This document shows positions 32,229 through 51,191 of a stretch of 64,000 bases of DNA, in pieces. The DNA lies in NCBI RefSeq assembly GCF_038719015.1, contig NZ_CP152276.1:3613501-3677500 (forward strand), in the 5' to 3' direction. The notes beneath the pieces are model-generated. The model was not told the origin of the DNA. It searched no databases and saw nothing but the letters and a program-made list of their open reading frames with translations. The position numbers and the translations under genes were made by a program. Origin of the DNA: Nguyenibacter vanlangensis. Its GTDB lineage: Bacteria > Pseudomonadota > Alphaproteobacteria > Acetobacterales > Acetobacteraceae. Numbering within the stretch: the first letter of the stretch is position 1; every line of letters starts with the position of its first letter.

Positions 32229-32408
32229 TCAGTGTCGGTGCCCCTTGTCATAGCTGTTCTTAATCTCCTCTCTGAGAATCACGATAACGCGCTCGATTGC
32301 TTTGGCGACTGATGGCAAATTGAAGCGCATCGCCTCGCGTTTGAGAAATTCGAGCCCAGCGCCAAGGCGCTCAACTCGCGTTTCCTCTTTCTCGCTCATA
32401 TTGGACAT
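32229..32408 (-). CDS. small charged helical protein, 59 residues
   Basis: Starts MSNMSEKEETRVERLGAGLE and ends HRH; almost entirely predicted helix with alternating Glu/Arg/Lys. GGAG lies seven bases before the ATG. It is divergent from luxI across a 153-bp gap that holds the candidate lux box, and precedes the membrane gene. No family recognised. Confidence 0.5.
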   Translation of the reverse strand: MSNMSEKEETRVERLGAGLEFLKREAMRFNLPSVAKAIERVIVILREEIKNSYDKGHRH

Positions 32409-32476
32409 CTGCGCGCTCCATAGTTCGTGAGCCGCATTAAGCCTGATTTTAACAAATGTTGCTCCTGGGATTTTTC

Positions 32477-32494
32477 CTAGGGCTTAAGCCTTAG
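32477..32494. promoter_or_regulatory. candidate lux-type box upstream of luxI
   Basis: CTAGGGCTTAAGCCTTAG is an 18-bp inverted repeat with a single mismatched pair. Its centre lies about 76 bases before the first luxI ATG. That suits a LuxR-type box near -42, with an AT-rich -10-like stretch (TTTTTTAT) about 30 bases downstream. It could also act on the divergent small gene. Confidence 0.5.
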
Positions 32495-32561
32495 AGCATT
32501 ATTCGCGGTTATTCAGTTTTTTATCGAAACGTCATCGTAACCCCATCAGTGCATTTGATGG

Positions 32562-33218
32562 ATGGTGGTGATGATTAAGATTATTACTTGTGCGAATATC
32601 GCCTGCAACGCTCAATATGTGGCTTCATTTGCAAAATTACGCTACAGAGTCTTCGTCGAACGTCTCGGCTGGACAGCTCCGGATCAAAGCTCAGCTCTTG
32701 GCTTCGAATATGACAGATTCGACACCAAGGACGCGATATATATTCTAGTATGTAATGCGCAGAGCGAGGTCATCGCCGGTGTTCGTCTGATCAAGACAAC
32801 AAGCCATTTCCTGCTTGCTCAGCTTTTTCCGACTCTCGATCCTCAGGCGATCCCAACCGGTGAGGATGTTCTTGAGGTCACGCGCTTTGTGGTTGAGCCC
32901 AATCGTGAGCGCTTGGGCGGCTGCAGCGATCCCGTCGGGCAGCTTGTCATGGCGTTACAGGAATTCGGTCTAAACAACAGCCTCCGGAATTTCATTTCCG
33001 TTTCCTACGCTGGAATGGAACGCCTCCTTTCCCAGGCGGGTTGCCGCTTTGCGCGCTTGGGCGGCCCGCAGCGCTTTGACGGTCGTATGGCCGTTCCTCT
33101 GAAATTCGAAATTTCGAAGGATGTCCTGAGCGCCGTTCAGAATCGCCTCGGCACTCCGCGGGTGGAAGAGCCGATCATCGTTCCGTCGCATCCCGTATTT
33201 GTGGCGATGGCCGCCTGA
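32562..33218 (+). CDS. luxI: LuxI-family acyl-homoserine-lactone synthase
   Basis: A 218-residue protein (215 if ATG 32571 is used, which has GGATGGTGG upstream). All invariant LuxI residues are visible: Arg27, Phe31, Trp37, Asp51, Asp54, Arg75, Glu105 and Arg108. It makes an N-acyl-homoserine lactone from SAM and an acyl-ACP or acyl-CoA. It heads a gene set with an ATP-grasp ligase and an ABC export system. The cognate LuxR lies at 39762, beyond those genes. The acyl chain cannot be predicted from sequence; the cluster's own ACP could in principle supply it. Confidence 0.95.
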   Translation: MVVMIKIITCANIACNAQYVASFAKLRYRVFVERLGWTAPDQSSALGFEYDRFDTKDAIYILVCNAQSEVIAGVRLIKTTSHFLLAQLFPTLDPQAIPTGEDVLEVTRFVVEPNRERLGGCSDPVGQLVMALQEFGLNNSLRNFISVSYAGMERLLSQAGCRFARLGGPQRFDGRMAVPLKFEISKDVLSAVQNRLGTPRVEEPIIVPSHPVFVAMAA

Positions 33219-33251
33219 AATTTCCCGTCATTCAAAAGAGGATATTTCCCT

Positions 33252-34484
33252 ATGCCACGCTTGCTACTCTTGGCGCCACGACCATCTTTTCTCTTCCGGA
33301 ATAATTCCGGTGCCTGCGTTCTTGATGGCCTGTCCGACGCCGTCTTCCTGCTCACCGATACAAGCTCGGCCCGTTACGCAGCAGAATTATTTTCCGGTCC
33401 GATCCAGACTCTCCCCTATCCTGCATTCGCATCAGCTCAGAAGATTTTTGCCGCCGTCGAAGCGGAGCACCATACACAGCCTTTTACGTCCGTGGGGCTA
33501 ATCGACGAGTCGCTGATGGAAATCGCGGCGGAGCTTCGCCTTTTTCTGGGCGTCGAGGGGATCGACCCGGATCTAGCCCTGCGTTTTCGCGACAAGACGG
33601 TGATGAAGGCCATCCTCGCAGAAGCCGGGGTAAGGGTTCCTTCCTACCTGCACAATGTCGAACGTTCCGGTGTCGGCGATTTGCTGGCGCGTCACGGTCG
33701 AGTGGTTTTGAAAGAACGCAAGGGCTTCGGCTCGCGTGGAGTAACATTCATTGACGATCTGAATGCCTTCGACGTCTGGGCTGCGCGAACCCGTGATCCC
33801 GAGATTTTCGAAGCGGAAGAATTCATTTCCGCCCCCCTCTATAACGTCAACACCATCGTCATCGGTGGTAAGATTCGTTTCACAGCAGTCATTTATAACG
33901 AACCGGGTATGGCGGATGTCGATTTTTCAAGCGGTGCACCTTTCGTGTCGTATGTCCTGCCCGAGGGTGAGCAGCAGGACCGCTTCGTTGCCTATGCCGA
34001 GCAAGTTCGCGCTGGGCTTGGTCTCGAAAACGGCGTTATGCATCTCGAATGTTTCTACAAAAGTAAGGACGAAATCGTTTTTTGCGAAGTTGCAGCACGT
34101 CCCGGCGGCGGGGGTGTCATGCGTCTGATCGAGAGCCAGTTCGGGATCAATATGGCGCGCGTCTCCCTCCAGCTCGAGCTCAAGCGTTATGGCGATGTTC
34201 TGTCGGCCATCCGACGCAGCGCCGGCATTGCGTGCTTCATCGGCTTTCGCAGCAGCGCTACCGGATTCATCCGGAATATCGCCAGCCATGATGACTTGAT
34301 TCGACCATGGGTCGAGCGCGTCAGCTACCGCAAGACGATGACGGATTTCGTGGCGTTAGCGGCGCATTGCACCGATTTTATCGCCCATATCGATTATCGA
34401 TCCGAAACGACTGACGACTTCCTCGCTCGCGCGACCGAACTCAACGCCGCCTTCAATCAATCACTGCTGATCGAGCCTGTCTGA
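33252..34484 (+). CDS. ATP-grasp ligase
   Basis: A 410-residue ATP-grasp enzyme. The nucleotide loop is VVLKERKGFGSRGV (about residue 155), the hinge EAEEFISAPLYNVNT, and the Mg-binding segment CFYKSKDEIVFCEVAARPGGGG (about 270-290). The order is as in the carnosine-synthase/BtrJ-like group that joins a carboxylate to an amine through an acyl-phosphate. It begins 33 bp after luxI and looks co-transcribed. It may form an amide on the cluster's acyl product. The acceptor is unknown. Confidence 0.85.
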   Translation: MPRLLLLAPRPSFLFRNNSGACVLDGLSDAVFLLTDTSSARYAAELFSGPIQTLPYPAFASAQKIFAAVEAEHHTQPFTSVGLIDESLMEIAAELRLFLGVEGIDPDLALRFRDKTVMKAILAEAGVRVPSYLHNVERSGVGDLLARHGRVVLKERKGFGSRGVTFIDDLNAFDVWAARTRDPEIFEAEEFISAPLYNVNTIVIGGKIRFTAVIYNEPGMADVDFSSGAPFVSYVLPEGEQQDRFVAYAEQVRAGLGLENGVMHLECFYKSKDEIVFCEVAARPGGGGVMRLIESQFGINMARVSLQLELKRYGDVLSAIRRSAGIACFIGFRSSATGFIRNIASHDDLIRPWVERVSYRKTMTDFVALAAHCTDFIAHIDYRSETTDDFLARATELNAAFNQSLLIEPV

Positions 34485-34548: not shown

Positions 34549-35328
34549 TTGAACGTCATGCCCTTACTCCGATCCTACGAACCCTCGTCACGATCACCGG
34601 CCGATGACTCCTTTGCCGTCTGTGTGGAGAACGTATCGCGTCATTTTGGTCAGGGCGCCTCCGCCGCCGTGGCACTCGACGATGTGAGTTTCCGAATCCC
34701 CGCTTCCGGTTTCGCTGTCCTGACGGGCCCTTCGGGCAGCGGCAAAACCACATTGCTAAACCTTATCGGCTGCCTGGACCGCCCGACGAGCGGCCGCATC
34801 CTGATCGCCCAAAAAGACACCAGCGGCTTCGACGAGCGACGGATGACGGCGTTTCGCGCCGAGACGCTGGGCTTCGTCTTCCAAAACTACAACCTTCTTC
34901 CTGTGCTGACGGCCTTCGAAAACGTCGAATTTCCGTTGCGGCTTATCGAGCCGGACCGGCAGCGCCGTCGCCGGATGGTGGGCGAGATGCTGGAGCGTGT
35001 CGGCCTCGGCGGGCTGAGCCATCGCAAGCCGGCTCAGCTCTCGGGCGGCCAGCAACAGCGTGTTGCCGTGGCGCGGGCGCTCGTCAAATCACCTGCACTC
35101 GTCCTCGCGGACGAGCCGACCGCCAATCTCGACGAACGCACAGCCATCGCCCTCATCGAGACGATGCGCGCCCTGCAGCGCGAGATTGGAACGACTTTCC
35201 TCTTTTCCTCCCACGATCCGCGCCTGATCGGCGAGGCAGACACGCATATCGAAATCGCAAACGGCCACCTGAGTGCGCTTCACCAGGGCAGCCGATCTCT
35301 CGCCCCCGTAAAGGAGACACGCGCATGA
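34549..35328 (+). CDS. ABC transporter ATP-binding subunit, LolD/MacB type
   Basis: A 259-residue ATPase: Walker A GPSGSGKTT, signature LSGGQQQRVAVARA, Walker B LVLADEPTANLD and an H-loop in FLFSSHDPRL. TTG 34549 is preferred as the start because GGGAG lies seven bases before it; ATG 34558 would leave the signal too far. It overlaps the permease gene by ATGA. Its type pairs with FtsX-like permeases that act on envelope substrates rather than on import. Confidence 0.92.
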   Translation: MNVMPLLRSYEPSSRSPADDSFAVCVENVSRHFGQGASAAVALDDVSFRIPASGFAVLTGPSGSGKTTLLNLIGCLDRPTSGRILIAQKDTSGFDERRMTAFRAETLGFVFQNYNLLPVLTAFENVEFPLRLIEPDRQRRRRMVGEMLERVGLGGLSHRKPAQLSGGQQQRVAVARALVKSPALVLADEPTANLDERTAIALIETMRALQREIGTTFLFSSHDPRLIGEADTHIEIANGHLSALHQGSRSLAPVKETRA

Positions 35329-36725
35329 GCGGGTTTGAAATCGCTTTTCGCAATACCGTGCGTAACAGTCGGCGATCCGTGCCGTCCATTGTCGCCGTCG
35401 CACTGGGAACGGCCGCGATCGTGCTGTTCAACGGATACGTCAGCTACATGATTCATGGCATGCAGACCGGCACCGTCCGCTCGCTCGGCCATCTGCAGGT
35501 GGTACGTGACGGCTATCTAGATTTCGGGCGTGGCAATCCCGGTCGTTTCTCGATCCATAATTATGAGAAAGTCATCGCCGCCATACGTCAGGAAGCGGCT
35601 CTCCAAAGCCGGATCGCCGTCGTGACGCCGGAGCTTGACGTCTACGGAATTGTAGGGCGCGACGGTCGCGATGAATCATCCTCCTTCGCCGGCGAGGCAT
35701 GGAATCCGTCGGAGCGCCGTGCTCTTGGCGCGTGGGACGGTTTCGACATGCATATGCCGGCGACGCGCGCCACACTGAACGAGGACCAGCCCGACAGTGG
35801 CGTGATGGGCGTGGGCCTGGCGCAGCTTCTGGATCTGTGTGGCGATCTGAAGGTGCCGCATTGCCGCGCCCTGCCGCAGATCATGCCCTCCCCCGCAGAG
35901 CGCGCGCCGGGCGCTACCACGCCGGATGATCTGGCTGCGCTCGCCGCCACGTCCATGGCCGTCCGTCCCGCCCCGAAGCCTGGCATCAGCGTAGATCTTC
36001 TCGCCGCATCGCCGACGGGTCTGCCGAACGTCATGAGAATGACGGTGCTACGCACCGAACGCCAGGCGATCCGGGATGTGGACGCCACCTACGTCGCCAT
36101 GCCTCTGGCCTTGGGGCAGAGGCTCGTCTTTGGCCCCGGCGTGAAGGCGGCTTCGACGATTATCGTCCAGCTTCGCCAGACGAGCATGATGGCCCCGGCA
36201 CATCCGATCCTCGAGCGCGTCGTCAAGAGCATCGATCCCGGCCTGACGGTGGTGGATTTTCATGAAGTCAGCCCGATCTATGATCAGATCGTCAATAATT
36301 ACAGAACGATCTTTCGCTTCATTGCTGTGTTGATGGGGCTGGTGACGATGTTTTCAGTCGCGAACACCATCACCATGGCCGTGGCTGAGCGGACACGCGA
36401 AATCGGCACCTTGCGCGCGCTGGGCTTCGAACGCTCCGCAATCCGCATGGTCTTCCTGATCGAGGGGGCCTTGCTCGGGTTGATCGGCGCCGTTTCCGGG
36501 GTCGCGGGCGGCCTGCTTATCGCGCGGTTGGTGAATGCCGCCGGCATGACATGGACGCCCCCGGGACGATCTGCACCGATACCCCTTCGGATCGAAACGG
36601 TATCGCAGCATGAAACGCTGATCGCCAGCGTCCTGGTTCTGACCATCCTCGCATGCCTTTCGGCCCTTCGTCCGGCTAGCCGGGCTTCCCGTCTCCCCAT
36701 CACAAAGGCTCTCCAACATGCTTGA
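35325..36725 (+). CDS. FtsX/MacB/LolE-type ABC permease
   Basis: A 466-residue protein with the four-helix topology of the family: one helix near residues 22-45 (SIVAVALGTAAIVLFNGYVS), a periplasmic domain of roughly 280 residues, then three helices from FRFIAVLMGLVTMFSVANT to the C-terminus. The conserved cytoplasmic loop ERTREIGTLRALGFERSAI contacts the ATPase. It would use ATP to move or release substrates at the outer face of the inner membrane. Confidence 0.9.
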   Translation: MSGFEIAFRNTVRNSRRSVPSIVAVALGTAAIVLFNGYVSYMIHGMQTGTVRSLGHLQVVRDGYLDFGRGNPGRFSIHNYEKVIAAIRQEAALQSRIAVVTPELDVYGIVGRDGRDESSSFAGEAWNPSERRALGAWDGFDMHMPATRATLNEDQPDSGVMGVGLAQLLDLCGDLKVPHCRALPQIMPSPAERAPGATTPDDLAALAATSMAVRPAPKPGISVDLLAASPTGLPNVMRMTVLRTERQAIRDVDATYVAMPLALGQRLVFGPGVKAASTIIVQLRQTSMMAPAHPILERVVKSIDPGLTVVDFHEVSPIYDQIVNNYRTIFRFIAVLMGLVTMFSVANTITMAVAERTREIGTLRALGFERSAIRMVFLIEGALLGLIGAVSGVAGGLLIARLVNAAGMTWTPPGRSAPIPLRIETVSQHETLIASVLVLTILACLSALRPASRASRLPITKALQHA

Positions 36726-37533
36726 TCTCGCCCCCGCCTTCGCTGCGCGCCTGCTCGTCGCGTTCGCGGCCCTTAGCGCATCCGCTTCCTCAATCGCCTT
36801 GGCGCAGGCGCCCGCCTCGTCCACAATTGATGCCCAGAACCTTCTGACTCGCTCGGACGCCGTGCGTAATCCGCCCGGATCGTTTTCTGCCCGCGTCACG
36901 CTGACTGAGTATCGCGACGGTGCGCAGAGCGACAGCGCGGCGCTCATGATTTATTCCCGCCCGTCGGAAAACTCCGGACAATATTACAACCTGGTTCGCT
37001 ACGAAGCCCCGGCCCGCGATAACGGCAAGCTGCTTTTGCACAAAGGTGTCGATCTTTGGTTCTTCGATCCCGCAAGCGCGGCGAGCGTGCGAATCTCGCC
37101 ACAGGCCCGCTTGCTGGGTGAGGCATCGAATGGCGATGTCATGACGACCAATCTGGGCAAGGACTATCGCGCGACCTTGCTGCGCACTGAAAATACGGAA
37201 GACGCCGCGCACCATGTGCATGAATGCGCCGTCCTGCACCTCACGGCCGAACGCGAAGATGTTCCCTATAACGGGGCGGATTACTGGATCGACCGCACCA
37301 CCGCCGTACCGGTGAAGATCAATTTCCTCACTTCCGAGGGACGCGTTCTGAAAACGGCCTATTTCCGTCGGTTCGACAACGTCCTCGGCGTTCAACGCCC
37401 GACCGAGACCGTCATTCTCGATGGCCTCAATCCTCACTGGATCACGGTCATGCGCACGGGAGCGTTTACCCCGCGGGAAATTTCCGTCGCCTGGTTCCAG
37501 CGCGACTACCTGCCGCGTTTCGAGGAGGAATGA
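36718..37533 (+). CDS. outer-membrane lipoprotein-sorting-like (LolA-fold) periplasmic protein
   Basis: A 271-residue exported protein with a signal peptide ending near SSIALAQA. The body (SFSARVTLTEYRDGAQ, LLLHKGVDLWFFDPAS, GADYWIDRTTAVPVKINF, LKTAYFRRFDNVLG) has the strand pattern of COG2834 proteins, which share the LolA half-barrel that shields lipids in the periplasm. It overlaps the permease gene by eight bases. With the permease and the next outer-membrane gene it suggests a lipid-like cargo route. Confidence 0.82.
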   Translation: MLDLAPAFAARLLVAFAALSASASSIALAQAPASSTIDAQNLLTRSDAVRNPPGSFSARVTLTEYRDGAQSDSAALMIYSRPSENSGQYYNLVRYEAPARDNGKLLLHKGVDLWFFDPASAASVRISPQARLLGEASNGDVMTTNLGKDYRATLLRTENTEDAAHHVHECAVLHLTAEREDVPYNGADYWIDRTTAVPVKINFLTSEGRVLKTAYFRRFDNVLGVQRPTETVILDGLNPHWITVMRTGAFTPREISVAWFQRDYLPRFEEE

Positions 37534-37534
37534 C

Positions 37535-39067
37535 ATGCAGAGGGCGGGATATGCGGCCCTTGCGATGTGCGGCGTCGCCGCCATCGTATCGCATGGCGCG
37601 AGGGCCCAGGTCGCACGGGCGCCGGATCTCCCTGGCTCGGTCCTTCCGCCGGAGAAACAGGTCCTTTCGTCCCCGACCCCTTCCTCCCCGGTCCCATCCA
37701 CGCGGCCGTCCACCGCAGCCCCGGATCTTCCGGGCGCAGTGATTGATCCATTGCCACAACAGCATGAACATGCCCCAGCCCAAAATTCGAAAGATGGCGA
37801 CACGCAGGCCGACATCCTGAAGGGGATCGAACTTCAAGCTTGGTACCAGAGCTTTCATGAGTTCGCGTTCACCTACACGGGAAAGAGCTGGGGCACATCG
37901 GATAACACCCGCATCGTCACGGGGTATCGGCGGCATATCCGGCTCGGCAAGCATTGGTCGATAGCCTTGTCCGATCGCCTGGATCTGATCCAGACGCTGC
38001 ATAATTTTCGACCAGCGGAGACGACCGGCAGCGCTGCCAGCCATACGCTGAATGCTCTGCGCGAGGTCTCGGCAAGCTGGCGCGGGAGCGGCGCGAACAC
38101 CGTGTTCATCGATCTGGGGCGGATCAACATCCGCAACGGTGTCGCCTCTGGCTACAACCCGACGGATTTTTTTAAGACCAATTCCGTGCTTCAGGCCACG
38201 ACGCTCGATCCAAGCGCCTTGCGGGAGGATCGCCTAGGGGTCTTCATGGTGCGCGCGCAGAAATTGTGGTCCTGGGGCGGCGTGACCGCGGCTTACGCGC
38301 CCCGTCTCTCCTCGCAGCACGATCCTTTCATGACACTTCAGCATATTCCGGCCTTCAGCCTAGATCTGAACCGCACGAATACGGCGCATACGGGATATTT
38401 CAAGATCTCGCCGCAGATCAGCCAGCGTCTCTCCGTGGATGCGATCGCCGTTATCCGTGAGCATGAAACACCTCGGATCGGTATCGACAGCTCGGCGCTG
38501 ATCGGGGACTCGATCGTCGTCTACGCCGAGGCGGCAATTTCACGCTTCAATATTCTCCAAGGCCCGGACGCCCTGACTGCGGTTCCGGAAGGCACGATGG
38601 CCGGAATCGCCGGCCCCGTCCGCTGGCGCGCGCGCATTGCTGCGGGCTTGACGTGGACGACACCGATCGGCATTTCCCTTACTCTCGAGAATCATTACAC
38701 GGGTGACGCGCTCTCCCATCACGCATGGAACGCATGGCGCTCCACAACGAACGAAGCCGCCCTCGACCGCCTATCACTCGAAGCGGCGCGCCGCAGCGGA
38801 GAGGAAGAGCCGATCACATGCGATGCCTGGTTTTTCCGTATCTCCGATAACCGAGTCTTCGGTCGGCGCGGGCTGGGCTTCTCCGCCTTTACCTTTATCG
38901 ATTCGCAAGACGGCAGCACCCTGACCCAGATGACGCTTTCTCAGGCCCTGACCCGACATTTGCAGTTGACCGCCCAGCTAGGCCTCTACACGGGTGACGC
39001 GCGCAGCGATTACGGCTCAGGTCCGGCGACGCGTTTTGTCTCAGCCTATCTTTCCTACCGTTTATAA
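37535..39067 (+). CDS. outer-membrane beta-barrel-like protein
   Basis: A 510-residue exported protein (signal peptide to about GARAQV). A Pro-rich segment follows (residues 25-75), then a long run of alternating amphipathic strands ending in SYRL, compatible with an outer-membrane barrel. It starts one base after the previous stop with GAGGAGG upstream. In other bacteria ABC/LolA-like/barrel gene sets of this kind occur together; the cargo is unknown. It is the last gene before the IS element. Confidence 0.65.
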   Translation: MQRAGYAALAMCGVAAIVSHGARAQVARAPDLPGSVLPPEKQVLSSPTPSSPVPSTRPSTAAPDLPGAVIDPLPQQHEHAPAQNSKDGDTQADILKGIELQAWYQSFHEFAFTYTGKSWGTSDNTRIVTGYRRHIRLGKHWSIALSDRLDLIQTLHNFRPAETTGSAASHTLNALREVSASWRGSGANTVFIDLGRINIRNGVASGYNPTDFFKTNSVLQATTLDPSALREDRLGVFMVRAQKLWSWGGVTAAYAPRLSSQHDPFMTLQHIPAFSLDLNRTNTAHTGYFKISPQISQRLSVDAIAVIREHETPRIGIDSSALIGDSIVVYAEAAISRFNILQGPDALTAVPEGTMAGIAGPVRWRARIAAGLTWTTPIGISLTLENHYTGDALSHHAWNAWRSTTNEAALDRLSLEAARRSGEEEPITCDAWFFRISDNRVFGRRGLGFSAFTFIDSQDGSTLTQMTLSQALTRHLQLTAQLGLYTGDARSDYGSGPATRFVSAYLSYRL

Positions 39068-39156
39068 GCAAAAGAAATCGGTCCAGCCTGGGTTTATCGC
39101 CCCCGGCAGGCGCGCGGCGAAGCCCGCAAAGCGATTTGTCTTTCCGGATTTTAGGG

Positions 39157-39629
39157 TCTGTTAGATCTTGATCCAATCTGCGGCTGCTGCGAGGTGAAGG
39201 ATAGCGAGGAACGAGGTGGCGGTCTTTTCGTATCGGGTTGCGACGGCGCGCCATTCCTTCAGACGGGCCCAGAGGTTTTCCACCAGATGCCGGTTTCGAT
39301 AAACCCATTGTGGACAGGCAACGGCAGCGTCCCGGCGCTTGGGCGGCATCGCTGGTCGCGCACCCATGGCCCAGACATGGTCCCGGAAGGCATTGGAAGC
39401 ATACCCCTTGTCACCGACGACCCATAATGGCTCGCGTGGCATGCGGTCGAGCATGGCGGGTGCGAGCGGCAGTTCGTGCGCCTGACCGGGAGCCAGGGTG
39501 AAGGTGGCGGCACGGCCACGTCCGTCAGCGACTACGCAGACCTTGGTTCCATAGCCGTCGGTGAAAATCTGTGTCCCATTGCTTTCAATCATTCCTTGTA
39601 TGCGAGAATAACCTACAAGATCTAACAGA
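39157..39629 (-). mobile_element. IS5-family element, internally deleted
   Basis: Bounded by a 14-bp perfect inverted repeat (TCTGTTAGATCTTG at 39157-39170 and its complement at 39616-39629). The total of 473 bp is about half a normal element. It contains only the C-terminal transposase part. No clear target duplication was found. Confidence 0.75.
39161..39592 (-). pseudogene. IS5-family transposase, C-terminal part only
   Basis: 143 residues with the DDE catalytic core end: LWVVGDKGYASNAFRDHVW (second Asp) and NRHLVENLWARLKEWRAVATRYEKT (catalytic Glu in the Y(x)R(x)E-type motif). The N-terminal part with the first Asp is missing through the deletion, so it cannot move itself. Confidence 0.8.
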
Positions 39630-39761
39630 TCATAATCACGAACTCGTGAACTTCTCAGGTGTGCTTCCGCGGAACTTTGACCCGCTCCGCACCTTTGCGC
39701 GATTGCGCCGCGTGATCACATTTCGTAATTAAATAGTGACAGGGTAACGAGGACGCCACGC

Positions 39762-43211: not shown

Positions 43212-43629
43212 GGGTTTTGGCCTCCCGCCCAGTTTCTACCGCTGCCACCACAACCGTCGTCAAGACGGCGGCACGCGGTGGCGCGCTGGCTTCGAACGAG
43301 GCGGGCGTCAGCATCGCTTCGACCCTCACCGTAGTGCCAAAAATCTGCCCGCGTCCCGTCGCACGATAGATGAGCGTGTCGGCCGACCCATCGGAGGCGC
43401 GATCGACGGTGAGTTGTTTGATCGTGGCGGGAAGAACTCTCGGCGCCACGCCATCCGGCCCGCGCAGTAATTCACGCCCAAGCCGCGCGCAGAACTGATT
43501 GACCCCCTCGATCAGGAGAAAGGTCGTATCGGCTTGCTGCCAATCGAGATAGCGCGATAGGTCGAGTATCGCCGTCATCGTGTCCGCGTCCCGGGTCAGC
43601 GGACCGCAGATAGAAAGAAAATGCCTCAT
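43201..43629 (-). CDS. second hotdog-like protein
   Basis: A 142-residue protein with a segment typical of the hotdog helix (LIEGVNQFCARLGRELL) and a strand-rich C-terminal half. AGGGAGAG upstream supports the start. It may form a heterodimer with the adjacent FabZ-like protein, as paired dehydratases do in aryl-polyene and highly reducing type II systems. Catalytic residues are not obvious, so it could be a structural partner. Confidence 0.6.
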   Translation of the reverse strand: MRHFLSICGPLTRDADTMTAILDLSRYLDWQQADTTFLLIEGVNQFCARLGRELLRGPDGVAPRVLPATIKQLTVDRASDGSADTLIYRATGRGQIFGTTVRVEAMLTPASFEASAPPRAAVLTTVVVAAVETGREAKTHAA

Positions 43630-43655: not shown

Positions 43656-44909
43656 TCAGGCGCGATCGTCGATTACGAGCCGCTGTTTGTGGCGATCCGT
43701 GGTCGCCAGCGTTTCGAAGCCGCGCGGCTCTACATGAATGTCCTGCCCCTTATCCGCCGCCTCGGAGAGCGCCGGGAGGGCAAGAAGGGCGTTGTGGCAC
43801 GCAATGATGGCGCCGGCGTCGTCGCTTAGCCCGAACACTCCCACACGCATGATATCTCGCCCGAAACTGTCGGCCGTCAGGCGGATTTCGATGTCCGGAT
43901 CGGTCATGCCCGAGGCCATGCCGATCGCCGATCGCACATCATCCGTATCGATGATGTTGCCCATGAAGTTGAAGTCGCGCCCCGTGCGGGCGATTCCCGA
44001 AAGTAAGATATCCCGCCCAGATTTCGCTACCGTGACACGATCGCCTGTCATATAACGCACGATGGGTACTGGGAGATGAGGGTCCAGACACGTGACCAGA
44101 AGGCGGTCCTGCGGGTCCAGCTCCAGAAAATATGCGTCGGAGCGGACGTGATAGATACCGGCGGATGTCGTCTCGATGCCGAGAAACCCTGCCTCGGAGA
44201 GCCCATAGAAACCGGTAATACGGGCGTGCGGAAAAATCTCCTGCACCAGCTTGCGTTTTGCGCCGCCGAAGGCCTCGCCAGTATAGAGAATGCTGCGTAT
44301 AGGCAACGTCTTGCCGGCTTCGCTCAAGGCGATGGCGAATTGTGCGATCGTTGCCGGTGTTCCGGTGAGGCCGTTCACCCCACAGCTTTCGATCAGATCA
44401 AGCGCCGGCCCGGTCATATCCGCGGCGCGGGCGCCATTGGGAAGGATCGTCGCCTGGCAGGCCTGAAGGATCGAATTCATCCCGTGATGCAGGATCGAAA
44501 AATTCCCGACCATGAAGAGGTTGAGAAACACGTCACTACGACGGATAAGTCCAGCGCTCCGGATTCGATGGATGAGAAGCTTGTCCTCATCGCTATGGCG
44601 GATGCCGGGCGGCAGAATTCGGGACATCACTAGCTTGGACGGGCCGGTCGTGCCGCTGGACCCACCGATATAGACCGGTGCGCCGCCACGATTGGCGTAG
44701 GCCCGTCGGGCAAGAGCGGCGTAATCCTGGCCCGAAAGGCATGGTACGTTTTTCTGGAATGTCTCGAGATCCGGCACGGCCGGAGCAGCGCCTTCGTGGC
44801 CCGCCACCGACCAGAGCCGCTCGACAACTGTTTTTATTTTGAAAGGAGAATAAAAAGTCGTGCGCACGGATGTGGCGGGCGCGACGTTCGCGCGTATCAT
44901 GTGGTTCAT
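43656..44909 (-). CDS. adenylate-forming enzyme, PaaK-like
   Basis: A 417-residue ligase: P-loop YIGGSSGTTGPSKLV, middle motif LYTGEAFGG and GFYGLSEAG (A5-type), as in phenylacetate-CoA-ligase relatives. The family makes acyl-AMP and transfers the acyl group to CoA or a carrier protein. The C-terminal domain is short and the usual catalytic Lys is not evident, so it may only adenylate or need a partner. The start at 44909 comes one base after the stop of the other ligase. Confidence 0.82.
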   Translation of the reverse strand: MNHMIRANVAPATSVRTTFYSPFKIKTVVERLWSVAGHEGAAPAVPDLETFQKNVPCLSGQDYAALARRAYANRGGAPVYIGGSSGTTGPSKLVMSRILPPGIRHSDEDKLLIHRIRSAGLIRRSDVFLNLFMVGNFSILHHGMNSILQACQATILPNGARAADMTGPALDLIESCGVNGLTGTPATIAQFAIALSEAGKTLPIRSILYTGEAFGGAKRKLVQEIFPHARITGFYGLSEAGFLGIETTSAGIYHVRSDAYFLELDPQDRLLVTCLDPHLPVPIVRYMTGDRVTVAKSGRDILLSGIARTGRDFNFMGNIIDTDDVRSAIGMASGMTDPDIEIRLTADSFGRDIMRVGVFGLSDDAGAIIACHNALLALPALSEAADKGQDIHVEPRGFETLATTDRHKQRLVIDDRA

Positions 44910-44910
44910 G

Positions 44911-46350
44911 TCAGATTGTCTCCAGATGAATGCGTTGAGCGAGTGACCGATGATCAATCTTGCCGCTCTCGGTGCGCGGCAGTTTCGGCAGGAATTTGAG
45001 GCGGAAATTGAAACCGGGGATTATGGGCTCGACGATCCGCTCAAGTGCGAGCCTTTCGGCCTGCGTGGCGGCGACATCGGCCGCTTCGAGAAAAAGCACG
45101 AGAACGCCTTCCTTGGTCTTGGCGTAACCTACGCCGGACACACCATGCAGCCCGCATAGGGAGTCGGCAACGGCGTGCAGCGAGATAAGCTGACCGTTGA
45201 TCTTCACCAGATGGGATGTGCGGCCAGCCCAGCTGTGCAGACCATCCCAATCGCGCCGAAAATGGTCCCCGCTCTCAATCCATTCCGGGGCGGGAACAAG
45301 AGCGAGGTCCGACTTCAAAAAGCCGAGCATCGCATAGGGCGAACGATAGAAAAGCCGCCCGATTCCATCATAATTTGCGTCCGCGATGCGGGTCTCGATC
45401 TCGGCTTGCATCGGATAGCCTGCCGAGATTGCGCCATCGTGCTCGAAACGTGTAAAATCCTCGATGGAGGAAACATCGATCGCAAAGAGTCTCGGCCCCG
45501 CTTCGGTCTGGCCGAAATTATTCCAGATCGCCCCGCAATGAGGCCGGAGCGCGCGGACATGATCGACGGTGAGGCGATCCGAAGCATTGAGAATGCGCAG
45601 ATCAGCTGAAACGAAAGACGAGCGCGCCCATTGCTGCGCTAGCCCGACGCACCAATCCCCCAGGATCGGCAGGATCGTGGTGCCACGCCGCTCGGCCTCG
45701 ACGGCGACGAGGCGCGAGTCGACGAAATCGATATAGTCGATAGCGCTACCAGAATGCAGGGTGCAGAGGGTGGTGGACAGGCCATACATATAGTTGACGG
45801 GAAATGCGCAGAGCGTCCGGTCCGATGCCGTAAGGCCGAGATAGGCGGTCACACGGGCCGCATTGGCCACGAGACGCTCCTCGTCATGCACGATCCTCTT
45901 GGGACGCCCTGTCGTCCCAGATGAACTGAACACGATCCGTGCAGGCTGCGCGGAAGGCGCGAGCGGCGCACCGTCGTCATTCGACGACGCTGGCGGCGCG
46001 GCATATGGCAGACGCACAACTTGGCATCCTTGAAGGACAGGGGGGATCGGCCGTCCCTCCGTCATCAGGAGGCGCGTGGTGCCCGTGTCGAAACCCTGCA
46101 TCGCGCTCGCTACGGCGCGCGGCGTCACGATCGTTGCGAGCAGCCCCTCATGTGAGATCACGAAGAGCGCGATGACGACTTCGATCGGAGAGAAGGCGAC
46201 GAAAATCGACAATGATTCCGGCACCGGAGGCTGCGCACGTAGGGCCAGGATCGCTTGCCGGCAGCGCCGCGCCGCTTGCGTGGCGTCGAGTTCATCGCCG
46301 CGCCATCGTAGCGTCCAGCCCGGACGTGTGAGGAACTCATGGAAGCGCAT
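44911..46350 (-). CDS. AMP-binding acyl-ACP/CoA ligase
   Basis: A 479-residue ligase: P-loop IVFSSSGTTGRPKRIVH, WNNFGQTEAGPR (A5) and the C-terminal ESGKIDHRSL with the catalytic Lys (A10). This domain order fits the ligases of aryl-polyene clusters that load an acyl or aryl starter onto an ACP. Two ligases side by side may activate a starter and an end group, or work in sequence. Ribosome-binding site GAGGG; seven bases after the KS stop. Confidence 0.87.
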   Translation of the reverse strand: MRFHEFLTRPGWTLRWRGDELDATQAARRCRQAILALRAQPPVPESLSIFVAFSPIEVVIALFVISHEGLLATIVTPRAVASAMQGFDTGTTRLLMTEGRPIPPVLQGCQVVRLPYAAPPASSNDDGAPLAPSAQPARIVFSSSGTTGRPKRIVHDEERLVANAARVTAYLGLTASDRTLCAFPVNYMYGLSTTLCTLHSGSAIDYIDFVDSRLVAVEAERRGTTILPILGDWCVGLAQQWARSSFVSADLRILNASDRLTVDHVRALRPHCGAIWNNFGQTEAGPRLFAIDVSSIEDFTRFEHDGAISAGYPMQAEIETRIADANYDGIGRLFYRSPYAMLGFLKSDLALVPAPEWIESGDHFRRDWDGLHSWAGRTSHLVKINGQLISLHAVADSLCGLHGVSGVGYAKTKEGVLVLFLEAADVAATQAERLALERIVEPIIPGFNFRLKFLPKLPRTESGKIDHRSLAQRIHLETI

Positions 46351-46357
46351 GGCACCC

Positions 46358-47647
46358 TCACGCCGCGAGAGACGGATTCTGAAGAACCATGGACGAGGCC
46401 AGCCCGCCCATTCCGAAGGAGTTCTTTAGAACGTTATTTAAACGTATCGATCTGGTGCTCCGCGCGAGAGGCACTTCGATCCGCGGGTCCACCTCGTCAA
46501 GATTGCGGATAGCGCCGATGAAATCGTCGCGGAAGTTCGCGATCACCCCCATGACTTCCATCGCTCCCGCAGCGGCGATCAAATGCCCATGGAGGGATTT
46601 GGCCGCAGTGACAGGAGGCATCGGCGTGTCGCCGAAGAGGCGGCGGATCGCGCGGCTCTCATGCAGATCATTGAGCTTGGTAGACGTTCCGTGCGCGTTG
46701 ATGCAGGAGATGTCCTGCGCCTTAAGGCCGGAATGCGCGAGCGCACGTTGCATGCACAGGAACATTTCCCTGTCTTGGGTATGCGGTGCCACGATGTGCT
46801 CCGCGCTTAACGAGGCGCCATACCCCATCAGGCGCGCATAAGGCGTGTGTCCTCGCCGGCGTACCGCATCTTCGCGCTCGACCACGAAGAGGATCGCTCC
46901 CTCCGCCGGTATGAAGCCGGAGCGTCGCGCATCGAACGGGCGTGAGCGGGCCGGCCCCTCAAGCTGCGGGTCCGTGCAGACGGCGCCGATCCCTTCAAGG
47001 CGCGCCACATTTAGCGGCGTGACCTTGGCCGAAACCCCACCGACGATGGCCGCATCGATGCGGCCATCGTCGATCGCGGCCGTCGCCATGCCCAGAGCCT
47101 GAAGCGACGCGGAACACAGGCCGACATGACAACGCGTGTATCCGCTGAAGCGAACCTGGCGATGAATGGCCCGGACGACACTCGTCACGTCAAGATCGAG
47201 CAATTCTGAGACACGAAAATGCTCGATCGCGTTGGCGACGAGTTTTTCGCGATCATTGCTGTTTTCGACACCAATCTTGGCGAGAAGATCACTGCATCGC
47301 TCAATATCGATGGCCGGCTCGTCAACCCCGATCACACAACCGATCCGATCTGCCTGATAGGCGTCGGAAGGGTTGAATTCGGCCAAAAGGCGGTTCAGCG
47401 CCTTTTCGGCGTAGAGAATTTCGCCCGGCCGGGCTACCTGGCCAGGTCGCTCGCGCGGCCAGCGTATCGTGTCGTTGCCCAGCTCGGGGAGACCGGCCCA
47501 TTTGGTGGCATAGGTATCGGTAGCAAATTTCTTGATGGTACGAATGCCGGTGCGGCCCTCCTGAAGAGCAGCGCTGACTTGATCGAGCGTATCGCCAAGC
47601 GGTGTGATAGCACCGATCGCGCTGATGCAGACAGGGGAATGGGTCAT
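46358..47647 (-). CDS. beta-ketoacyl-ACP synthase (FabF-like, active KS)
   Basis: A 429-residue ketosynthase with the complete triad: Cys178 (VGLCSASLQALG), His319 (CINAHGTSTK) and His355 preceded by Lys350 (KSLHGHLIAAAG). It extends an ACP-bound chain by decarboxylative condensation. The upstream open frame to 47773 is not used. Its partner, encoded just upstream at 47719-48837, is a KS-like protein without the triad, so the two are likely a KS/chain-length-factor heterodimer. Confidence 0.92.
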   Translation of the reverse strand: MTHSPVCISAIGAITPLGDTLDQVSAALQEGRTGIRTIKKFATDTYATKWAGLPELGNDTIRWPRERPGQVARPGEILYAEKALNRLLAEFNPSDAYQADRIGCVIGVDEPAIDIERCSDLLAKIGVENSNDREKLVANAIEHFRVSELLDLDVTSVVRAIHRQVRFSGYTRCHVGLCSASLQALGMATAAIDDGRIDAAIVGGVSAKVTPLNVARLEGIGAVCTDPQLEGPARSRPFDARRSGFIPAEGAILFVVEREDAVRRRGHTPYARLMGYGASLSAEHIVAPHTQDREMFLCMQRALAHSGLKAQDISCINAHGTSTKLNDLHESRAIRRLFGDTPMPPVTAAKSLHGHLIAAAGAMEVMGVIANFRDDFIGAIRNLDEVDPRIEVPLARSTRSIRLNNVLKNSFGMGGLASSMVLQNPSLAA

Positions 47648-47718: not shown

Positions 47719-48837
47719 TCAATGCGTTGACGGTGTTCTGATCTTGCGCAGCGTGATGCAGCCGACACCCCATCCAAGTCCCGCGCCGTTGATCATGATC
47801 AGCGCACCCGGCGGCACCGTCGCATCGACGAGGATCGCCGCGAGATCAAGCAGGTTGTTGGGCTTGCCGGTGTACCCGATCAGATTCTTGAAGGCCTTCT
47901 GAGGCACATCCGGATAAATCGCAGCCAGCGCTTCCCTTTCTGCCGCATCGAGAAGCGGGGCTCCGTTGCGGTAGGCCACGATGATATCTGGCGTGCCACA
48001 CTGCTCCTTGGCGCGCGTGAACAGCTTTTTCCATGTCGCGGCCTGGGGCCAGGGCTCCGGGGCGAACAGGGAAGAGGCATCAATGATTTCAGCGAGAGCA
48101 TAGGGATGGTCTTGTGCCGACAGCATGAGAGCTGCCGCGCCGAATGTTGGGTCGATCTGCCCCGGCTCTTCATCCTTGCCGACAAGCCCCATCTTCCCGA
48201 AAGCCACGAGAGCATCGAAGGAGCGCATATTTCCCGAGGCAACGACCGCCGCTCCATTCGGGGCCCGGTCCGTCATGATTTCACGCCAAGCATCCTCAAG
48301 CGCGCAAAGCCCACTGAGTGACATTGCGCGGATCGGATACCCCCCCCCATGAGCCTCAAGCCGCTTGGACGCGTGATAAAGAGTGTTTGTGGAAAGAAGC
48401 CGCATCATGTTGAGCGGATTTCCATAATCGCGAATTTCGCCCAGATGGTTCATCAGGGCCTCACGCCCGGGATACTTGGCCATCAGGCCGCAAAGCGAGG
48501 TGAACCCGTATTCCGCGCTGTCCGTCGCGGTGAAGACGGGGACATTCTCATGGTCGTCGTTCGCCGCCTGATCTGCGGCATCATTACCAGGGACATTGCC
48601 GCTTAGAGCGTCGGCCATCGCGTTCAGCGAGGCGACGGTGTGCGGGCTCAAAGTCGAGCGGTCCTCGCGGGCGATCGCCGCTAGCGCCGCCGCGCCTAAG
48701 GTGATGGAAGGCGCGGCATAGACGCTGGCAGGCGTAGTCGAAGGCGATTCCCGCATGTTGACGGCCTGCGCCAGCGCCGCCAGTCCAGAGCAACGCTCCG
48801 CATGAACGCCGATACTGTGGATGAAGACTCTGGACAT
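47719..48837 (-). CDS. KS-like protein lacking the triad, chain-length-factor-like
   Basis: A 372-residue thiolase-fold protein that aligns by eye with the KS. The nucleophile position reads MSLSGLCALE (Ser where Cys is expected) and the two His positions are absent (VAYRNGAP, GYTGKPNNLL). The gene order, KSbeta immediately before KSalpha, is as in type II systems. A run of nine G/C at 48340-48348 within the coding region encodes Gly164-166; slippage there would shift the frame. Confidence 0.75.
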   Translation of the reverse strand: MSRVFIHSIGVHAERCSGLAALAQAVNMRESPSTTPASVYAAPSITLGAAALAAIAREDRSTLSPHTVASLNAMADALSGNVPGNDAADQAANDDHENVPVFTATDSAEYGFTSLCGLMAKYPGREALMNHLGEIRDYGNPLNMMRLLSTNTLYHASKRLEAHGGGYPIRAMSLSGLCALEDAWREIMTDRAPNGAAVVASGNMRSFDALVAFGKMGLVGKDEEPGQIDPTFGAAALMLSAQDHPYALAEIIDASSLFAPEPWPQAATWKKLFTRAKEQCGTPDIIVAYRNGAPLLDAAEREALAAIYPDVPQKAFKNLIGYTGKPNNLLDLAAILVDATVPPGALIMINGAGLGWGVGCITLRKIRTPSTH

Positions 48838-48857
48838 TTGACGTTCCCCTTCTTTTT

Positions 48858-49229
48858 TCAGATGGCGGTGAGGCGCTGCTCGATGAAATCGATGGAGAAG
48901 TGGGAGTAGAGCTCGGTGGCGGTCGGCTCACCCTTGACGATATCACTGTCCTTGCCGAAGACATCCTCCAGCTTGGCGCGGCCGATATCGGTCCAGGTCC
49001 CGGCGGCGAAGCATGTGCGATCAGCCAGCATAGCGTTGACCGGCCAGAGATCATCGGGCGTAAAAGTCTTTCCGGTAACGTTGCGAAGCTCAAACGCGAA
49101 ATCTACGAAATCGAGCGACGACATCCCATACTCCGTGAAAAGGGAACGAGCCGTCTCGATGGCCGAAGCATCGTCGAGATACATGACTTCGCTGACGATC
49201 TTGGCGATATCATTTTTATTGATGGTCAT
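48858..49229 (-). CDS. acyl carrier protein with C-terminal extension
   Basis: A 123-residue protein. The 4'-phosphopantetheine site is in YGMSSLDFVDFAFEL (Ser38 by alignment with the DSL motif). A typical ACP is about 80 residues; the additional 40 (ELYSHFSIDFIEQRLTAI at the end) are unusual and may dock the ligases or KS. AAGGAG lies nine bases before ATG. The Sfp-type transferase at 40547 is its likely activator. Confidence 0.87.
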   Translation of the reverse strand: MTINKNDIAKIVSEVMYLDDASAIETARSLFTEYGMSSLDFVDFAFELRNVTGKTFTPDDLWPVNAMLADRTCFAAGTWTDIGRAKLEDVFGKDSDIVKGEPTATELYSHFSIDFIEQRLTAI

Positions 49230-49274
49230 TTTTCGAATCTCCTTCGAATGAATTGGAAATGTGAATTGAGTTGG

Positions 49275-50027
49275 TCAGAACGTCATTTCGCCATTGCCGA
49301 GCACGATGGTCGTTCCCGTCGTTTTCAGGCGTCCCTCGATGAATGCGATGACGGGATTGGCGACATCTTCAGGGGCAAGAATCTCGCGCGTAGGTAATTT
49401 CGAGATGAGATCATTGTCTTTTCCTTTCGCGTAGTTGCGGAACATGGGGGTATCGACGAAGCCCGGCGCGACACAGAGCGTCCGAATGCCGAACCTTGCA
49501 ACCTCAAGCGCGAGGCTCGCGGTAAACCGCTCGAGAGCGATTTTCGTGCTTCCGTAAATCGCGTTTCCGACACCGGCCTTGCGACTGGCGATGGACGTCA
49601 CGTTGATGATCGCGCCGCGCCGCGCCGGGGCCATCAGCGTCGCGACTTCGCTGGCGATGATGGCCGGGGAAAGAAAATTGACCGTATTGACGAAACGCAG
49701 ACGCTCCGTGATCGCGCCGATCGCCAAGCCTTCCTGCAACACACCCGCGGTGTTGACGAGGGCCACCGGCGCCGGTGCATCACGCAGGCATTCGACGAAA
49801 CTCGCCACACTTTCCGAAGAGCTAAGATCGACGCGATAACCGCGCACCCGCCCCTCGAAACGTGCACTCATATTATCAGCGGATGAATTTCCACTGTTAT
49901 AAGTGAAAGAAACGACGTATCCGAGCGCAATGAGACGCTCGATAATACAGAACCCGATCCCGGATGTGCCGCCTATGACTACGGCATGAGGCGGCGTTTT
50001 TTCCTGCTCTATTTCGGTCGATGACAT
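49275..50027 (-). CDS. 3-oxoacyl-ACP reductase-like SDR
   Basis: A 250-residue FabG-like SDR: GGTSGIG (about 20-26), NTAG, catalytic Ser in INVTSIASRK, then Y-G-S-T-K (IYGSTKIALERF), and VAPGFVDTPM. It would reduce the 3-keto group made by the KS. It is the first gene of the minus-strand synthesis operon; the start at 50027 is preferred but the ribosome-binding site is weak, and an upstream GTG at 50138 is possible. Its promoter must lie in 50028-50204, shared with the divergent dehydrogenase. Confidence 0.88.
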   Translation of the reverse strand: MSSTEIEQEKTPPHAVVIGGTSGIGFCIIERLIALGYVVSFTYNSGNSSADNMSARFEGRVRGYRVDLSSSESVASFVECLRDAPAPVALVNTAGVLQEGLAIGAITERLRFVNTVNFLSPAIIASEVATLMAPARRGAIINVTSIASRKAGVGNAIYGSTKIALERFTASLALEVARFGIRTLCVAPGFVDTPMFRNYAKGKDNDLISKLPTREILAPEDVANPVIAFIEGRLKTTGTTIVLGNGEMTF

Positions 50028-50204
50028 TTTTCTTACGCCCGTTTGGTGTTGCAGAGCGATAAGATCGTTTTTTGCGGCGTTCGTAACTCTGGTAAAAATG
50101 CGGGGGGATAAACCTCGCAATGTCATTTCTACTTTCACGGCCTACGATCTATCCATGAGCCGTCCAACGGGATGCTGCTCATAATGATGCAAAAGGGGTC
50201 AAGA

Positions 50205-51191
50205 ATGACACGGCCGGTCGTCGTGCAGATGGGCATGATGCTTAATTCGTCGCAGCACGAGCTCGACATGCGTTATGATGTCAGGAAACTTCCTAGAAGG
50301 CTTCATGTTCAGCAAAACTGGCTGCACACGCACGGTCAGTCCGCCCGTGCGGTGCTGACCCCAGCCCATGTGGGAATCTCGCTCTCGCAGGCAAATCTGA
50401 TGCCGAATCTCGAAATCGTCGCGATTTGCGGCATCGGGCAGGATTGCGTCGATGTCGATGCCATCAGGGATCGCGGGATCACTATCACCAATACGCCCTA
50501 TGCCTCAACAGCCGATGTTGCGGAGCTTGCGATCGCCCTTATGCTGAATGTTTTTCGTAACATACCCAGCGCGTTTGACTTCGTGCGCTCCGGTCGTTGG
50601 GCTCATGAGGTGCCGAGACTGGGGCGGCGCTCCTCCAGCTTGCGTTACGGGATCGTCGGATTGGGGCACATCGGCACTGCAATCGCCGAGCGTCTGGCGG
50701 GATTTGGCGGGAGCATTGCCTATACGGGGCGCCGCGCCCGCGATGTACCTTGGAGTTACTACCCTAGTATTTTGGAACTCGCCCAACAATCAGACGTGCT
50801 GTTCTTAGCTCTCCCCAGCACACCGGAAACACGGAGCGTGATCGGAGCCGCGGAGCTTCGCGCGCTGGGCTCTTCTGGCGTTTTAGTGAATGTTGCGCGG
50901 GGCGCCGTCGTCGATGAAAACGCCCTGATCGCCGCCTTGCGGCAAGGCGATCTATGGGGGGCTGGCCTTGACGTCACGTCCACCGAACCGAGCGTGTCGC
51001 CCGCCCTGCTGGCGCTGGAGAATGTAATCGTCCTTCCGCATGTCGGCGCCAGCACACTCGAAGCCGTCACGGCGATGGAGGCCGCCGCCATCGCGGAACT
51101 GGATCGGCATTTTTTTGGAATGGCTTCCCCCCCCCGAGGGTCTGGAGCCCGTTTGAGAGCATGGGTCCCTTCGGCCTTTGCTCAACCCTGA
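50205..51191 (+). CDS. D-isomer-specific 2-hydroxyacid dehydrogenase
   Basis: A 328-residue NAD-dependent dehydrogenase: GLGHIGTA cofactor loop, NVARGAVVDE (catalytic Arg), STEPSV (Glu) and LPHVGAST (His). ATG 50205 follows AAGGGG. It is divergent from the reductase and could supply or remove a 2-oxo/2-hydroxy acid used as starter or end group. A nine-C run at 51127-51135 sits near the 3' end; with eight C the frame would end in PEGLEPV, a more usual C-terminus than the present tail RGSGARLRAW and onward. Confidence 0.85.
   Translation: MTRPVVVQMGMMLNSSQHELDMRYDVRKLPRRLHVQQNWLHTHGQSARAVLTPAHVGISLSQANLMPNLEIVAICGIGQDCVDVDAIRDRGITITNTPYASTADVAELAIALMLNVFRNIPSAFDFVRSGRWAHEVPRLGRRSSSLRYGIVGLGHIGTAIAERLAGFGGSIAYTGRRARDVPWSYYPSILELAQQSDVLFLALPSTPETRSVIGAAELRALGSSGVLVNVARGAVVDENALIAALRQGDLWGAGLDVTSTEPSVSPALLALENVIVLPHVGASTLEAVTAMEAAAIAELDRHFFGMASPPRGSGARLRAWVPSAFAQP

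What the first reader, a model, noticed from the sequence alone, without database searches (positions are those of the whole stretch)
32229..51191. Quorum-sensing-linked highly reducing type II acyl/polyene biosynthesis and export cluster
Seen: an intact LuxI and an intact LuxR; KS, triad-less KS partner, extended ACP, ketoreductase, two hotdog proteins, two adenylate-forming enzymes, Sfp-type PPTase; an ATP-grasp ligase; an ABC/FtsX-type/LolA-like/outer-membrane route; three to four membrane proteins. Known: KS-CLF plus KR plus DH plus ACP makes polyene chains in aryl-polyene and ishigamide-type systems. Inferred: LuxIR turns on production and envelope placement or export of a polyenoyl conjugate. 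The set is much smaller than classical aryl-polyene loci (no glycosyltransferase, acyltransferase or ammonia-lyase seen) and joins parts not normally described together.
Basis: partly seen in the sequence, partly recalled or inferred. Interest (0 to 1): 0.88.

Follow-up and report, generated by a model that had tools for sequence, protein, structure and literature searches.

The report
Quorum-linked acyl-chain synthesis and export island
A relative of the vinegar bacteria carries a 20-kb gene island that probably lets crowded cells build an unusual fatty-acid-like chain, attach it to another molecule and ship it out; the chain-building enzymes belong to a small, scattered family for which no description turned up in the papers searched.

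Summary
The gene set is real; two assignments are weak (second hotdog protein, outer-membrane protein). The core (ACP, KS, triad-less KS partner, KR, ligase) recurs in seven other loci. All eight KS keep Cys-His-His and all eight partners show Ser-Tyr-Tyr; the eight KS form one clade (100/100) apart from FabF-like, E. coli aryl-polyene and Streptomyces KS. It is not an aryl-polyene locus. Added here: a pentapeptide-repeat gene; a probable split dehydratase; a 478-bp direct repeat bracketing the island; an 18-base palindrome shared by three luxI promoters at one distance, with the next-best window score reached before the KR operon; and a same-species genome carrying LuxI/R, ATP-grasp, pentapeptide and export relatives around a different core. 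Most likely an AHL-controlled, highly reducing type II PKS whose acyl chain is joined to an amine and exported by a Lol-like route. Polyene nature, conjugate, AHL control and export are inferred. New variant of a known kind; interest 0.6.

The parts
32464..32481 (+). lux-box-like 18-base palindrome before luxI
   Evidence: shared with both luxI promoters of G1110 at about the same distance; best score in the window with a matrix from the two G1110 sites, 0 of 5000 shuffles
32562..33218 (+). luxI, AHL synthase (likely ATG at 32571)
   Evidence: PF00765 1e-18; only one in the genome; aligned with two G1110 LuxI
33252..34484 (+). ATP-grasp ligase
   Evidence: PF13535; weak matches to BacD and DdaF amide ligases; relatives in L059, G057, G336, L061, L062, L063 and G1110
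34549..35328 (+). ABC ATPase, LolD/DevA-like
   Evidence: PF00005 2e-33; DevA and LolD models below cut-off
35325..36725 (+). FtsX/LolCE-type permease
   Evidence: PF02687; lolCE model below cut-off
36718..37533 (+). LolA-like periplasmic carrier
   Evidence: PF17131 9e-31; profile of four matches a solved LolA-superfamily protein, E 4e-55
37535..39067 (+). probable outer-membrane protein
   Evidence: no family or PDB match; 32% identical relative in same order in G1110
39151..39635 (.). IS remnant between export operon and luxR (an intruder, not a working part)
   Evidence: 20-nt ends, 90% complementary; 93% identical over 406 bp to an Acetobacter plasmid
39762..40535 (+). luxR
   Evidence: PF03472 and PF00196; 49-52% identical to two G1110 LuxR
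40547..41221 (-). Sfp-type phosphopantetheinyl transferase
   Evidence: PF01648 1e-12
41303..41617 (+). pentapeptide-repeat protein
   Evidence: PF00805 2e-9; relatives in L059 (31%) and G1110 (32%)
41640..42221 (-). membrane protein mem1
   Evidence: hydrophobic segments; relatives in six core loci
42247..42786 (-). membrane protein mem2, DUF6622-like
   Evidence: PF20327 5e-8; relatives in five core loci and G1110
42783..43211 (-). hd1, FabZ-like hotdog with catalytic His motif
   Evidence: profile matches FabZ E 1e-9 and ApeI 87%; His in 7 of 7
43201..43629 (-). hd2, putative second hotdog carrying Glu
   Evidence: invariant E-x3-Q in 6 of 6; fold not shown
43656..44957 (-). lig1, PaaK-like adenylating enzyme
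   Evidence: relatives in all seven other core loci
44911..46350 (-). lig2, acyl adenylating enzyme
   Evidence: PF00501 9e-20; 39% identical in L059 and L060 only
46358..47647 (-). ketosynthase KS
   Evidence: PF00109 and PF02801; Cys-His-His in 8 of 8; own clade
47719..48837 (-). triad-less full-length KS partner
48858..49229 (-). extended acyl carrier protein
   Evidence: PF00550 2e-7; aligns over its whole length with other loci
49275..50027 (-). ketoreductase KR (ORF open to 50138)
   Evidence: PF00106 6e-33; alignment of eight
50088..50105 (-). lux-box-like site before the KR operon
   Evidence: 14.46, next-best score in the window, shared with 3933 and the reverse of the luxI site; 6 of 5000 shuffles of this promoter
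50172..51191 (+). D-2-hydroxyacid dehydrogenase; membership open
   Evidence: PF02826 2e-46; no relative
30845..31322 (+). left copy of the bracketing direct repeat
   Evidence: 478 bp, 98%
51746..52223 (+). right copy of the bracketing direct repeat
   Evidence: 478 bp, 98%

Best explanation
A probably acquired, quorum-controlled biosynthetic island. Shown from sequence: an intact KS with a full-length triad-less partner, ACP, KR, a FabZ-like hotdog, two adenylating enzymes and a putative second hotdog sit in one conserved run; a luxI-led run carries an ATP-grasp ligase and LolD/FtsX/LolA-like export genes. Inferred: the PPTase primes the ACP; lig2 and/or lig1 activate and load a carboxylic starter; KS and partner extend it with malonyl units; KR reduces and an hd1/hd2 pair with a shared active site dehydrates each round, with no enoyl reductase among the genes identified, which would leave an unsaturated, perhaps polyenoyl chain; the ATP-grasp enzyme joins the acyl group to an amine such as an amino acid; the ABC/FtsX pump lifts the amphiphilic product to the LolA-like carrier and the outer-membrane protein. 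AHL from LuxI, bound by LuxR, acts at the palindrome before luxI and probably at a weaker site before KR, so that signal, ligation, export and chain building rise together.
For: Core conserved in eight loci with the triad pattern 8 of 8 and 8 of 8. Biosynthesis and export genes run together in L059. hd1/hd2 motifs mirror E. coli ApeI/ApeP. ATP-grasp gene near the core in six of the seven other loci; the seventh, L060, ends before that point. Palindrome shared by three luxI promoters; a matrix from the two outside sites ranks the window's luxI site first (0 of 5000 shuffles), with the KR promoter at the next score (6 of 5000). LuxI/R, ATP-grasp and export relatives kept together in G1110 around another core.
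Against: No LuxI/R relative in the seven other core loci. KRs lack the proposed polyene leucine in 8 of 8. hd2 fold unproved. The palindromes were picked by eye from the promoters before testing; the KR site ties with 3933, which has no known role, and fails a 3-mismatch pattern scan; none at luxR. Sigma-70 promoter-like and terminator-like scans at chance level.
Confidence: 0.6

Rival explanations
1. Quorum sensing is only a neighbour: LuxI/R control themselves and perhaps the export genes, while the biosynthetic operon is regulated otherwise.
For: No LuxI or LuxR relative at E 0.01 in the fetched stretches of the seven other core loci; regulator genes identified there are LytTR in G057, L059 and L062 and LysR in L061. 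An IS remnant lies between the export run and luxR, and luxR has no box (1557 of 5000 shuffles as good).
Against: luxI leads a closely spaced run with the ATP-grasp and export genes; G1110 keeps this association with another core; the KR promoter holds a next-best box.
Confidence: 0.2
2. A short or cyclic acid made the cispentacin/coronafacic way: lig2 loads 2-oxoglutarate, the KS pair condenses and cyclises, hd1 acts as a decarboxylase-like hotdog.
For: AmcH is the second-best NCBIfam model for lig2 (77 bits, cut-off 370) and AmcF matches KS (167 bits, cut-off 325). AmcE in that pathway is a hotdog decarboxylase that keeps the His (PMC10698177, passages).
Against: Both matches are far below cut-off and below FabF for KS (239 bits). 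A KR is conserved in all eight loci, while the route described in the PMC10698177 passages uses none.
Confidence: 0.1
3. A reduced aryl-polyene (APE) pigment locus.
For: Shared logic: KS plus partner, KR, hotdog pair, adenylating enzyme, LolA-like carrier. APE clusters are reported in Acetobacteraceae (PMC8776678, section 12).
Against: E. coli ApeC is 240 aa and unlike the partner; KS only 28% (ApeO) and 31% (ApeR) identical to E. coli APE KS and in a separate clade; no second KS, MMPL pump, glycosyltransferase or thioesterase among the island genes identified; KR mark differs.
Confidence: 0.05

Closest known systems
Highly reducing type II PKS of the ishigamide kind (Streptomyces Iga11-Iga12)
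   Same: KS with KS-like partner, KR and dehydratase giving an unsaturated chain that ends in an amide (ishigamide per PMC8041823 and PMC8358021, passages)
Aryl polyene (APE) clusters, E. coli CFT073 as yardstick
   Same: KS-partner, KR, ApeI/ApeP-like split hotdog motifs, LolA-family carrier
   Different: Half-length ApeC, second KS ApeR, MMPL pump, glycosyltransferase and thioesterase in APE; KS 28-31% identical only
Cispentacin/coronafacic acid type II PKS-like system (AmcB-H)
   Same: ACP, KS pair, adenylating enzyme, hotdog
   Different: Our loci have a KR; model matches below cut-off
LolCDE/LolA-like and DevBCA/DarD-type exporters
   Same: ABC ATPase, FtsX-type permease, LolA-like carrier
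   Different: All model matches below the equivalog cut-offs; cargo unknown

Membership tests
Type II PKS (KS plus chain-length-factor-like partner) | Discrete KS with Cys-His-His next to a KS-fold partner lacking the triad, with ACP | tested here: met
   8 of 8 and 8 of 8; profile match of partner to KS; ACP
Highly reducing (polyene) type II PKS | Dedicated KR and dehydratase in the cluster, no enoyl reductase | tested here: met
   KR in eight loci, FabZ-like hd1; no enoyl reductase among island genes given to Pfam
Highly reducing (polyene) type II PKS | KR leucine proposed for polyene KRs (PMC8041823) | tested here: not met
   Phe in 7, Trp in 1 of 8 KRs; Leu in ApeQ. The mark is a proposal, not an established criterion
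Highly reducing (polyene) type II PKS | Conjugated polyene product | not testable with these tools
   needs chemistry
Aryl polyene cluster | Half-length CLF of ApeC kind | tested here: not met
   372 aa against 240 aa, no profile match
Aryl polyene cluster | Second KS of ApeR kind and MMPL pump | tested here: not met
   neither among the island genes identified
Cispentacin-type PKS | AmcF and AmcH family membership at curated cut-off | tested here: not met
   167 of 325 and 77 of 370 bits
LuxI/LuxR quorum-sensing pair | AHL synthase and AHL-binding regulator families in one locus | tested here: met
   conserved LuxI blocks shared with two G1110 LuxI
LuxI/LuxR quorum-sensing pair | AHL production and AHL-dependent promoter | not testable with these tools
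   promoter palindromes only
Split heterodimeric dehydratase (ApeI/ApeP kind) | Catalytic His on one hotdog chain and Glu on its partner | tested here: inconclusive
   motifs fit, hd2 fold not shown; structure jobs failed

The most novel reading that the evidence does not exclude
An undescribed family of proteobacterial highly reducing type II PKS, marked by its own KS clade, a full-length Ser-Tyr-Tyr partner and a split dehydratase, makes acyl amides; and in acetic-acid bacteria a separate chassis of LuxI/R, ATP-grasp, pentapeptide protein and Lol-like exporter is reused with interchangeable acyl-building cores, so that quorum sensing, conjugation and export travel as one swappable cassette.
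Probability: 0.35. Interest if true: 0.78.

Novelty: new variant of a known kind. Interest (0 to 1): 0.6.

Why it matters
It would add another branch of non-aromatic type II PKS logic beside the ishigamide/APE and cispentacin branches, with eight loci at hand for chemistry, and a quorum-controlled, Lol-like exported acyl conjugate in a bacterial family whose predicted specialized metabolites were reported as not yet purified (PMC8776678, passage of its conclusion). One regulatory-export chassis found with two different cores is a concrete test case for modular evolution of gene clusters.

Tried and rejected
Gyrase self-resistance by the pentapeptide protein was set low: the three copies seen have 91, 104 and 114 aa, and PMC8145042 (start of abstract in a listing) asks for at least eight contiguous repeats; that known protectors are larger is recalled. 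LuxI taking its acyl group from this PKS: possible, no evidence either way. APE and cispentacin readings: see rivals.

No match of the partner protein in 72,556 plasmid records, two queries, E 1e-3; the KS query matched 901 plasmid records, none at 60% identity or more, so KS-like genes as such say little. No Rfam match in 28-56 kb. Promoter and terminator scans at chance level. ATP-grasp relatives in G440 and G569 lie in stretches with no other match to the cluster proteins. The empty site of the island was not shown: the stretches of G003, G007 and G008 shared with the window only the beta-lactamase-like gene and the ORF antisense to it among ORFs compared at E 1e-20 and over 45% identity. 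The first KS tree held four FabF rows that I had read on the wrong strand, one of which the program dropped; it was redone with eight FabF-like rows. A window-to-window shift in the KR start (50138 to 50027) is my choice from alignments.
Full report
Setting. The window is a 64-kb part of a 4.75-Mb single-contig genome. Plasmid matches point to Acetobacteraceae: a toxin-antitoxin pair near 30.0-30.8 kb is 81% identical to one on a Komagataeibacter plasmid, an IS remnant 93% identical over 406 bp to an Acetobacter plasmid.

Anatomy. On the + strand a closely spaced run leads from luxI (32562-33218) through an ATP-grasp ligase, ABC ATPase, FtsX-type permease, LolA-like protein and probable outer-membrane protein to 39067; luxR follows at 39762 behind an IS remnant with 20-nt, 90% complementary ends. 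On the - strand KR, ACP, KS partner, KS, lig2, lig1, hd2, hd1, mem2, mem1 and the PPTase run from 50027 down to 40547. A pentapeptide-repeat gene (41303-41617, +) lies between PPTase and mem1 and was not in the finding. PF00765 has one match in the genome.

Bracketing repeat. 478 bp at 30845-31322 return at 51746-52223 with 98% identity; next to the left copy a 51-bp stretch matches (92%) a place 490 bp beyond the right copy. The island so lies between two copies of one stretch, the left one internally deleted; arrival by insertion is inferred, and no empty site was shown.

The core elsewhere. The triad-less partner served as marker. Strong matches: 3 of 385 genomes drawn from the class, the window's own included; 1 of 299 from the family, its own; 2 of 398 from the phylum, own included, with 20 further matches of at most 36 bits; 1 of 14 in G336's family; 1 of 61 in G057's family with 18 weak ones. 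One scan of genome contigs with two peptide patterns gave 33 candidate stretches and 5 loci: a Woeseia MAG (L059), a gammaproteobacterial MAG (L060), Pseudomonas salomonii (L061), Roseobacter cerasinus (L062), P. palleroniana (L063). With G057 and G336 that makes seven other core loci. Such a scan can miss relatives.

Two subtypes. Subtype A: window, L059, L060, KS 65-67% identical, with lig2. L059 has the export, priming, chain-building, ligation and pentapeptide genes in one direction; mem2 was not found there and its ATP-grasp reads in two frames. L060 ends after lig1; upstream it has a LolA-like gene, a PPTase and a penicillin-amidase-type gene just before KR. Subtype B: G057, G336, L061, L062, L063, KS 45-47% identical, no lig2; ACP, partner, KS and ligase are followed by mem2, mem1, hotdog, KR and ATP-grasp, in four of five with another ligase behind it. 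An arylamine-N-acetyltransferase-type gene beside KR was seen by Pfam in the three of these five loci tested. G336 also has PALP and PLP-decarboxylase genes upstream of the ACP. Regulators differ from the window: LytTR in G057, L059 and L062, LysR in L061; no LuxI or LuxR relative at E 0.01 in the fetched stretches.

Enzymes. KS Cys-His-His in 8 of 8, partner Ser-Tyr-Tyr in 8 of 8. The partner profile aligns with the KS profile (92%), not with E. coli ApeC. In a tree of 21 KS the eight form one group at 100/100 against 8 FabF-like, 2 APE and 3 Streptomyces rows; APE and Streptomyces rows are long-branched, and Iga11 and AmcF were not at hand. hd1 matches FabZ and ApeI and has the His in 7 of 7, while the FabZ Glu position is not conserved in it. 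hd2 has an invariant Glu-x3-Gln in 6 of 6; E. coli ApeI shows the His, ApeP the Glu-x3-Gln. PMC8041823 (passages) calls ApeI/ApeP a heterodimer with a single active site. Against a polyene: the proposed leucine is absent in 8 of 8 KRs.

Regulation. An 18-base palindrome lies before luxI and before both luxI genes of G1110, centred about 94 to 99 bp before the start codons assumed: CCTGGGATTTTTCCTAGG, CCCAGGATTATTCCGGGG, CCTGGCATTTCTCCCAGG. I picked these among palindromes of those promoters after seeing them. A matrix from the two G1110 sites alone puts the window's luxI site first in the window (20.8; 0 of 5000 shuffles of that upstream region). The next score, 14.46, is shared by three places: the reverse of that site, 3933, and 50088-50105 in the KR promoter (6 of 5000 shuffles of that promoter; 12 of 5000 with the three-site matrix). 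luxR has none, and a pattern scan with up to 3 mismatches finds only the luxI site. So control of luxI is well supported by sequence, control of the KR operon only suggested.

Same chassis, other core. G1110, a fragmented genome of the same species (87% complete), gave nine DNA matches to the island, none in the - strand operon. Its contig C4 carries LuxI relatives of 63% and 43% identity, two LuxR (49-52%), ATP-grasp (35%), mem2 (31%), ABC (48%), FtsX (39%), LolA-like (35%), OMP (32%) and a pentapeptide protein (32%), beside FabH-like, AurF, acyl-CoA dehydrogenase, TauD, PLP decarboxylase and GNAT genes and an AMP-ligase relative. A FabF-like fragment and another ligase relative lie on contig C15. 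A family search with the ATP-grasp pair gave the window's gene and two weaker, unlinked ones in 299 genomes; G1110 is not among the matches listed, so I take it as not drawn.

Literature. PMC8776678 (sections 12 and 15 read, other passages seen) reports APE clusters and AHL synthases in Acetobacteraceae but not this combination in what I read. PMC8041823, PMC8358021, PMC8253772, PMC10698177 and PMC10132072 were seen as passages. Searches listed no paper on it.

Verdict. A quorum-linked, highly reducing acyl cluster with export is the best explanation (0.6); polyene nature, conjugate, export of the product and AHL control of the KR operon are inferred. It is a new variant of type II PKS logic, not a new kind of system.

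Noticed in passing
window 30845-31374 and 51746-52762; also 16844-16905: Direct repeat bracketing the island, left copy internally deleted; a 62-bp piece of the same sequence (95%) occurs again near 16.9 kb.
   Followed up: partly
window 30041-30774: VapB/VapC-type toxin-antitoxin pair just outside the island; PIN domain, 81% identical to a Komagataeibacter plasmid pair.
   Followed up: partly
window 39151-39635: IS remnant between export operon and luxR, which may have changed luxR expression.
   Followed up: partly
window 47041-47072: Perfect 32-bp palindrome inside the KS gene; no explanation.
   Followed up: no
L082 and L083 (G1110 contig C4): A cluster with two LuxI, two LuxR, AurF, FabH-like, acyl-CoA dehydrogenase and TauD genes and the same export chassis.
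   Followed up: partly
L060 6895-8871: Penicillin-amidase-type gene directly before KR, possibly a maturation or self-protection acylase.
   Followed up: no
L019 8670-11146: PALP and PLP-decarboxylase genes beside the core in G336, possibly making the amine partner.
   Followed up: no
L061 4985-9243: RND pump (HlyD-type and AcrB-type genes) beside the core in Pseudomonas salomonii, in place of the Lol-like set.
   Followed up: no
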